Assembly (NCBI GenBank): GCA_903852325.1
Contig: CAINQO010000082.1
Span: 1-33,305, forward strand
Source of the DNA: Candidatus Omnitrophota bacterium
GTDB taxonomy: Bacteria; Omnitrophota; Gorgyraeia; Gygaellales; Profunditerraquicolaceae
DNA: 33,305 bases
Direction: 5' to 3'
Shown here: in pieces, positions 17,666 to 18,357 of the stretch
Numbering within the stretch: position 1 is the first letter of the stretch
Layout: each line of letters opens with the position of its first letter
Translations under genes and position numbers: made by a program
Notes under the pieces: model-generated
Told to the model about the DNA's origin: nothing
The model's database searches: none
The model's input: only the letters and a program-made list of their open reading frames with translations

Positions 17666-17738
17666 ATCCCGCACCATCTTGGTAATTCGCTCTTAAGTCA
17701 GACGGTTTAATAAATTAAATAGAAAGATGGTGCGGGAT
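17666..17738 (+). promoter_or_regulatory. Hairpin element B sequestering RBS/start codon of the downstream pseudouridine synthase gene
   Basis: Perfect 15-bp inverted repeat ATCCCGCACCATCTT (17666-17680) / AAGATGGTGCGGGAT (17724-17738), related to element A with a compensatory stem change. Confidence 0.75.
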
Positions 17739-18357
17739 GAATATTCCCATTATTTTCGAGGATGATTGGCTGCTGATAGTGGATAAGCCCGCCGGATTGT
17801 TAAGCGTTCCCTTAACTAAAGAATCGCGCAACCTGACCGGTGTCCTTAATGAAGACCTGCGGGAAAGGGGCCTGAAATACCGATTGTATCCCTGCCACCG
17901 GCTGGACCGGGAAACTTCCGGGCTATTGATTTACGCTAAAAGCAGGCAGCTTCAGGAGCAAATGGCGGACATCTTCAGGGACCGGCTGGTAAGCAAGAAA
18001 TACACCGCTTTTGTGCACGGTAAATTGGGCGCAAGCACCGGGGAGATCAAGGCGCCGCTGGAAGGAAAAAGCGCGCTTACCAAATACCGGGTTTTAGAGG
18101 AGAGAAATAATTACAGCGTCGTCGAAGTTTCTCCGGCCACCGGCAGGACTAACCAGATCCGCCTGCATTTTAAATATATCGGCCATCCGCTGGTCGGAGA
18201 GGACCGGTTTGTTTTCCGCAAGGATTTCGCTTTACGGGCAAAGCGGGTTTGCCTGCACGCCGGGTACCTGGAATTTAAGCATCCGCAGACGCAAAAAACA
18301 ATGATCTTCCGCGCACCGTTACCCGCGGATATGCAGAAATTTATCGACACGCATTAG
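17737..18357 (+). CDS. RluA/RluD-family pseudouridine synthase
   Basis: VDKPAGLLSVPLT; CHRLDRETSGLLIYAKS; KKYTAFVHG; ATGRTNQIRLHFKYIGHPLVGE. Confidence 0.93.
   Translation: MNIPIIFEDDWLLIVDKPAGLLSVPLTKESRNLTGVLNEDLRERGLKYRLYPCHRLDRETSGLLIYAKSRQLQEQMADIFRDRLVSKKYTAFVHGKLGASTGEIKAPLEGKSALTKYRVLEERNNYSVVEVSPATGRTNQIRLHFKYIGHPLVGEDRFVFRKDFALRAKRVCLHAGYLEFKHPQTQKTMIFRAPLPADMQKFIDTH

What the first reader, a model, noticed from the sequence alone, without database searches (positions are those of the whole stretch)
17666..17739. Hairpin element B: second copy of the same element, with a compensatory stem change, before an rluD-like gene
ATCCCGCACCATCTT...AAGATGGTGCGGGAT is element A with T-to-A in the 5' arm matched by A-to-T in the 3' arm, and one extra pair. 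The 43-nt loop keeps AGTCA-N4-GTTTA and an A/T-rich ...AATTAA...GAAAGA 3' part. It also starts 3 nt after the upstream stop (nadA) and ends in the ATG of the next gene. Two copies ~8 kb apart with preserved pairing, loop motif and position relative to stop and start argue for a functional or mobile structured element. I recognise no known riboswitch or REP family in it.
Basis: seen in the sequence. Interest (0 to 1): 0.82.

Follow-up and report, generated by a model that had tools for sequence, protein, structure and literature searches.

The report
Start-codon-invading hairpin element
The hairpin is one of dozens of small mobile DNA elements that have jumped into gene start codons in a group of uncultured bacteria (Omnitrophota); each carries a new ribosome-binding site and start codon at its end, so the invaded gene should still be read, and each appears to be the shrunken form of an element that encodes a small DNA-cutting enzyme.

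Summary
Element B (17666-17739) and element A (9728-9803) belong to a multi-copy family in this Omnitrophota genome: 25 model hits, 22 of them ending exactly at an RTG start codon. Relatives show it is mobile. Orthologous genes in the same genus lack it (empty sites). Copies are flanked by a 4-bp duplication (usually TGAA) that contains the TG of the start codon, and some copies are nested inside others. The outer arms are terminal inverted repeats. The 3' arm supplies a Shine-Dalgarno sequence (AGAAGGTG) and the first base of a new start codon, so the invaded gene keeps a start. The old start codon now reads a short ORF through the element. In the commonest class (71 nt) that ORF stays open and ends in an RTGA overlap with the new start, as in translational coupling. 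The same arms, at the same kind of site, also flank roughly 290-360-bp elements encoding a GIY-YIG endonuclease (MNPAPS...KKEGAG, read from the host gene's own start codon). The short elements are therefore best read as internally deleted, non-autonomous forms. The closest known kind is the mycobacterial MIRU. The GIY-YIG parent and the hairpin ends are new to me. Coupling and GIY-YIG-driven movement are inferred, not shown.

The parts
17666..17739 (+). Element B as reported: hairpin with its end in the ATG of the rluD-like gene. The inserted DNA proper is 17667 (T) to 17737 (A).
   Evidence: Sequence; empty orthologous sites in relatives
17663..17666 (+). Left target-site copy, TGGA (right copy TGAA at 17738-17741; one base has diverged)
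   Evidence: duplication statistics over 106 copies
17738..17741 (+). Right target-site copy TGAA, containing the TG of the rluD-like start codon
17666..17680 (+). 5' arm / left terminal inverted repeat
17724..17738 (+). 3' arm / right terminal inverted repeat; AAGATGGTG (17724-17732) is the new Shine-Dalgarno region, in front of ATG 17737
   Evidence: family alignment
17662..17685 (+). Short ORF from the old start codon, MDPAPSW*, start overlapping the nadA stop (TAATG)
9728..9803 (+). Element A, same family, at the start of the cysteine-desulfurase-type gene; inserted DNA 9729-9801
   Evidence: empty and filled orthologous sites
9725..9728 (+). Left target copy TGAA, overlapping the upstream gene's stop TGA (ATGA)
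9802..9805 (+). Right target copy TGAA, in the new ATG
9724..9768 (+). Short ORF from the old start codon of element A, MNPAPSNYCHILVI*

Best explanation
Element B is a short, non-autonomous mobile element, probably the internally deleted form of an element of about 290 bp whose only gene is a GIY-YIG endonuclease. It inserted at the start codon of an rluD-like gene that directly followed nadA and duplicated 4 bp (TGAA) containing the start codon's TG. The original start codon now opens an ORF that runs into the element: in the full-length element this is the endonuclease, read from the host gene's own start, and in the short element a mini-ORF. The element's right inverted repeat (AGAAGGTGCGGG plus A or G) meets the duplicated TGAA to make a new Shine-Dalgarno sequence and a new RTG start, so the invaded gene stays translatable. 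In RNA the two arms hide that ribosome-binding site. A ribosome reading the mini-ORF, or ending the upstream gene, should open the stem or re-initiate at the RTGA overlap. Shown here: multi-copy family, start-codon position, empty sites, target duplication, nesting, orientation bias, open mini-ORF, and GIY-YIG ORFs between the same arms at the same kind of site. Inferred: that the GIY-YIG protein drives movement, that the short forms derive from it, and that translation is coupled.
For: Own genome: 22 of 25 model hits end exactly at an RTG of a long co-directional ORF, and 2 of the other 3 are the upstream members of tandem pairs. Fresh set from other genera of the family: 18 of 20. Empty sites: about 15 same-genus genomes have the rluD-like gene starting straight after nadA with no insert, and a dozen have the desulfurase gene without one; further gene pairs. 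Duplication: left and right 4-mers identical in 78 of 106 copies (54 when shuffled), and where the gene does not start NTGAA, 13 of 21 (1.2 when shuffled). Nested insertions with a 4-bp duplication: L204, L207, L286. Loop orientation 99 forward, 2 reverse. Mini-ORF: 60 of 82 copies have the in-frame length, 42 of 82 are open to the RTGA overlap; stops in 4 of 36 class-I copies, 12.6 expected (P about 0.001). GIY-YIG ORFs between the same arms: G010, G011 (intact from ATGAAC to KKEGAG*GTGA at nrdR), G014 (frameshifted), G025, G240; a homologue with decayed arms sits at nrdR in the window's own genome. In the protein database 33 of 48 homologues begin MNP-like and most end in EGAG; in a second repeat family 102 of 120 begin MNP-like and most end in LTG. 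MIRU precedent: PMC12548453.
Against: No transposition was observed. Beyond the terminal repeats, class-I loops are not significantly similar to the endonuclease elements (P 0.08-0.43); only anchored subterminal bases are (P about 0.01). G013, among the richest in copies, has no close GIY-YIG homologue at E <= 1e-12, though its assembly is incomplete. In other families (G240, G213) short copies are mostly intergenic, not at starts. In a folding test a ribosome over the 5' arm raised accessibility of the new ribosome-binding site only from 0.002 to 0.08 for B, and from 0.02 to 0.32 for A. In element B the mini-ORF stops 54 nt before the new start, so B is not coupled by an RTGA overlap.
Confidence: 0.8

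Rival explanations
1. A vertically inherited RNA switch: an intergenic hairpin that hides the ribosome-binding site and couples or regulates downstream genes, kept by selection and not mobile.
For: Arms stay paired in old copies, with some two-sided changes; the 3' arm is the Shine-Dalgarno region; orthologous genes in several species carry a copy.
Against: Empty sites in most relatives, start-codon duplications, nested copies, different loop classes at the same orthologous gene, unrelated downstream functions and no Rfam match. Coupling may still be a consequence.
Confidence: 0.08
2. A mobile palindrome that inserts at any TNAA site; start-codon copies are simply the ones that survive because they rebuild a start, and mobility is due to an unknown transposase. 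The GIY-YIG ORFs are passengers.
For: Other target copies (TAAA, TTAA) occur in nested or intergenic copies; intergenic copies prevail in G240 and G213.
Against: In the window intergenic TNAA sites far outnumber start codons with TGAA (110 plus 119 on the other strand, against 8), yet in G000 nearly all copies are at starts. GIY-YIG ORFs recur between three different repeat types, each time read from the host start. Selection and targeting are not separated by my data.
Confidence: 0.25
3. REP/REPIN-type palindromes moved by a RAYT (Y1 tyrosine transposase).
For: Short, palindromic and multi-copy; Y1 genes exist in most relatives.
Against: Y1 genes do not track copy number (one fragment in G000, none in G025) and show no pair of arms around them. 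A 4-bp target duplication is not the RAYT/IS200 pattern (general knowledge).
Confidence: 0.03

Closest known systems
MIRU (mycobacterial interspersed repetitive units)
   Same: According to PMC12548453 MIRUs appear mobile, insert at start codons, and carry an ORF coupled to the invaded gene with -4 nt spacing, which is the architecture of the class-I copies here.
   Different: Different phylum; near-complete palindromes with terminal inverted repeats; the right end supplies the Shine-Dalgarno sequence; relatives that encode a GIY-YIG endonuclease. No sequence comparison with MIRUs was made.
MITEs and small bacterial palindromes (reviewed in PMC10969869)
   Same: Short, non-autonomous, terminal inverted repeats, target duplication, nested copies, a longer coding form with the same ends.
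   Different: Sits in start codons and rebuilds them; the candidate parent encodes a GIY-YIG nuclease, not a known transposase. The review text contains neither 'start codon' nor 'endonuclease'.
Free-standing GIY-YIG homing endonucleases (PMC1564403)
   Same: Small GIY-YIG catalytic domain as the only gene of a mobile element.
   Different: Multi-site insertion with inverted-repeat ends and a 4-bp duplication, inside start codons; homing endonucleases are described as driving copying into a cognate allele and not recognising their own mobile DNA (PMC1564403).
Rickettsia palindromic elements (RPE)
   Same: Palindromic and inserted so that the host gene stays expressed.
   Different: RPEs insert in frame inside ORFs and modify the host protein by translational fusion (PMC10969869); here the host protein is unchanged and restarts.

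Membership tests
MIRU | Mobile insertion at start codons | tested here: met
MIRU | Internal ORF overlapping the downstream gene by 4 nt (RTGA) | tested here: met
   42 of 82 copies with an old start codon. Not met by element B itself, whose ORF stops early.
MIRU | Found in mycobacteria, sequence homologous to MIRUs | tested here: not met
   Taxonomic part only: the host is Omnitrophota; sequence homology was not compared. So 'works like', not a member.
MITE | Terminal inverted repeats and target-site duplication | tested here: met
MITE | Ends shared with an autonomous element | tested here: inconclusive
   The same 12-bp arms flank GIY-YIG ORFs, but that those elements are autonomous is not shown.
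REP/REPIN with RAYT | Associated Y1 tyrosine transposase | tested here: not met
Known riboswitch or structured RNA (Rfam 15) | Score over a family's gathering threshold | tested here: not met
   only a tRNA in the window
GIY-YIG nuclease (PF01541) | Match of the long element's ORF to the Pfam model over its cut-off | tested here: met
   46.9, 60.3 and 58.2 bits, cut-off 22.6
GIY-YIG homing endonuclease | Cleaves the empty target site | not testable with these tools
   Needs purified protein

The most novel reading that the evidence does not exclude
A widespread class of mobile elements whose only gene is a small GIY-YIG endonuclease and which live inside start codons: the nuclease is translated from the invaded gene's own start, and the element's hairpin end gives the gene back a ribosome-binding site and an RTGA-coupled start. 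At least three terminal-repeat families (CCCGCACC, CCCGCCC, CCCGTTAG) use this design, and their deletion derivatives make up families of short palindromes such as element B.
Probability: 0.65. Interest if true: 0.88.

Novelty: new variant of a known kind. Interest (0 to 1): 0.78.

Why it matters
It shows how a parasite can insert at the most sensitive point of a gene with little apparent harm: it borrows the gene's start and hands back a new one. It offers a candidate enzyme (GIY-YIG) for palindromic repeats that lack a known mobiliser, and a possible model for how MIRU-like elements arise. It also affects annotation: gene starts next to these hairpins, and 'GIY-YIG nuclease' ORFs that begin MNPAPS or MNPVRP, are partly element sequence.

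Tried and rejected
Rfam scan: no family. Named-genome and viral pattern scans: apart from Omnitrophota records the hits I looked at were mainly GC-rich chance matches, and the three viral hits have different stems. RAYT/Y1 transposase as mobiliser: no correlation and no arms around it. Peptide conserved for its own sake: synonymous and non-synonymous changes are equally frequent in all frames, so only openness of the frame seems kept. Loop motif AGTCA-N4-GTTTA as a ligand site: not shared by other classes. Similarity of class-I interiors to the endonuclease gene: not significant beyond the subterminal bases.

Full report
WHAT IS IN THE WINDOW. Element B is a perfect 15-bp hairpin with a 43-nt loop, ending in the ATG of an RluD-type pseudouridine synthase gene, just after nadA. 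Element A is the same kind of hairpin in front of a cysteine-desulfurase-type gene. The nadA stop overlaps an ATG (TAATG), and the stop of the gene upstream of A overlaps an ATG (ATGA). These upstream ATGs are the old start codons.

A FAMILY AT START CODONS. The genome (G000, 1.63 Mb, 123 contigs) holds ten exact CCCGCACC-N40-70-GGTGCGGG copies and none of the reversed control. All ten end at an ATG or GTG of a long ORF, and the paired base opposite the A or G changes with it (T-A in five, C-G in five). A covariance model built from them gives 25 places that I inspected; 22 end exactly at a start codon, two more are upstream members of tandem pairs, and one is an exception. Across 39 relatives counts range from none to dozens per genome within one genus. 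In a phylum-wide sample 26 of 292 genomes score at E <= 1e-6, mostly in the same family. A fresh set from three other genera of that family, not used to form the idea, has 18 of 20 copies at start codons; in two more distant families the palindrome is mostly intergenic.

IT IS MOBILE. (i) Empty sites: in about 15 same-genus genomes the rluD-like gene starts right after nadA (for example ATTGTTTAGATGAATATTCCG) without the insert that B forms in G000. The desulfurase gene is empty in about a dozen relatives and filled in G000, G012, G021 and G013; G014 carries an unrelated palindrome at the same codon. Dozens of further filled/empty pairs come from the fetched loci. (ii) Target duplication: the 4 bp left of the element equal the 4 bp right of it in 78 of 106 start-codon copies against 54 in shuffles; among genes that do not begin NTGAA, 13 of 21 match against 1.2. 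Examples are ATGCGT|...|ATGCGTAAG and ATGAGT|...|ATGAGTAAA. (iii) Nesting: 26-nt minimal copies sit inside the loops of other copies with TGAA or TAAA on both sides, and uninterrupted versions exist (L204, L207 against L283; L286). (iv) The same start codon is hit by different loop classes in different species.

HOW IT TREATS THE GENE. The right arm reads AGAAGGTG-CGGG-RTG: a Shine-Dalgarno sequence at normal spacing, then the new start. The loop lies in one orientation relative to the gene in 99 copies and the other in 2; because the arms are inverted repeats, either orientation would rebuild a start. The old start reads M-N/D/S-P-A-P-S... into the element. Of 82 copies that keep an old start, 60 have the length that puts the new start in the -4 overlap frame, and in 42 the frame is open all the way to RTGA. 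Among 36 copies of the 71-nt class, 4 have a stop where about 12.6 are expected from their own substitutions. The peptide itself shows no synonymous excess. So an open frame seems to be kept, not a peptide. Folding predicts the new ribosome-binding site to be almost fully paired (0.2-2% unpaired); placing a ribosome on the 5' arm frees it partly for A and little for B. Coupling is thus supported by architecture and by the MIRU precedent, but not demonstrated.

THE LONG FORM. In G014 a 292-nt copy with the same arms carries a frameshifted GIY-YIG ORF. A search for PF01541 and for close homologues then found: G011, 293 nt, intact, read from the host's ATGAAC to KKEGAG and a TGA overlapping the GTG of nrdR; G010, 359 nt, also at nrdR; G025, 325 nt, read in frame from the host start; G240, 288 nt, at leuD; and in G000 itself an intact ORF with decayed arms, again at nrdR. 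The names nrdR and leuD rest on my reading of the translated starts, not on a profile search. A short copy occupies the nrdR start in G009, and it is empty in others. Two other repeat types have the same layout with a GIY-YIG ORF: CCCGCCCTTCC (MNPALP...GRAG*) and CCCGTTAGACC (MNPVRP...GLTG*), the latter with GGAGGT in its right arm. Pfam confirms GIY-YIG. Among homologues in a 5.8-billion-protein set, 33 of 48 begin with an MNP-like start and most end EGAG, and 102 of the top 120 of the second family begin MNP-like and mostly end LTG. The host-start-to-overlap design is therefore general. Short elements fit as deletion derivatives: same arms, same sites, same termini (LNKKEGAG). Their interiors are too short and diverged to prove it.

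KNOWN OR NOT. A 2025 review states that MIRUs appear mobile, insert at start codons and carry an ORF coupled at -4 nt (PMC12548453). The present element works like a MIRU but differs in phylum, palindromic ends and GIY-YIG relatives; it is not filed as one. I found no paper in the searched library joining GIY-YIG genes to palindromic start-codon elements. That library lacks most subscription journals, so this is weak evidence of absence.

OPEN POINT. In the window intergenic TNAA sites far outnumber NTGAA starts, yet copies sit at starts. Targeting and selection both remain possible.

Noticed in passing
L463 (G012), L490 (G152), L496 (G297), L497 (G313): Small GIY-YIG ORFs lie beside tRNA-like sequence with a copy of GTGGCTCAGTTTGGCTAGAGC nearby on the other side in L463, perhaps the same trick of restoring the invaded gene, here a tRNA.
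   Followed up: partly
L221 4349-4398, L223 4038-4127 (reverse-strand coordinates as printed), L227 1074-1144 (G000): Short copies with other stems (CCCGCCCTT..) also end at start codons: a second family in the window's own genome.
   Followed up: partly
L305 (G014), upstream of the desulfurase gene: An unrelated palindrome (CCCTTCGACGCG...GTCGAAGG) sits between ATGA and ATGAAG at the same start codon.
   Followed up: no
G240 and G213 short copies (L432-L442): Intergenic copies lie in a recurring context (GTGCGAATTAA...TTCGGAC), possibly another, larger palindrome.
   Followed up: no
window 15379-15578 and 32699-32898: 200-nt inverted pair, 71% complementary, in or next to intergenic DNA.
   Followed up: no
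window 26937-26964 and 29612-29639: 28-nt direct repeat, 96% identical; the first copy overlaps the 3' end of a tRNA gene (26882-26953).
   Followed up: no
P0042: GIY-YIG protein with a second in-frame NPAPL...NNGAG segment near its C-terminus: a likely nested insertion that stayed coding.
   Followed up: no
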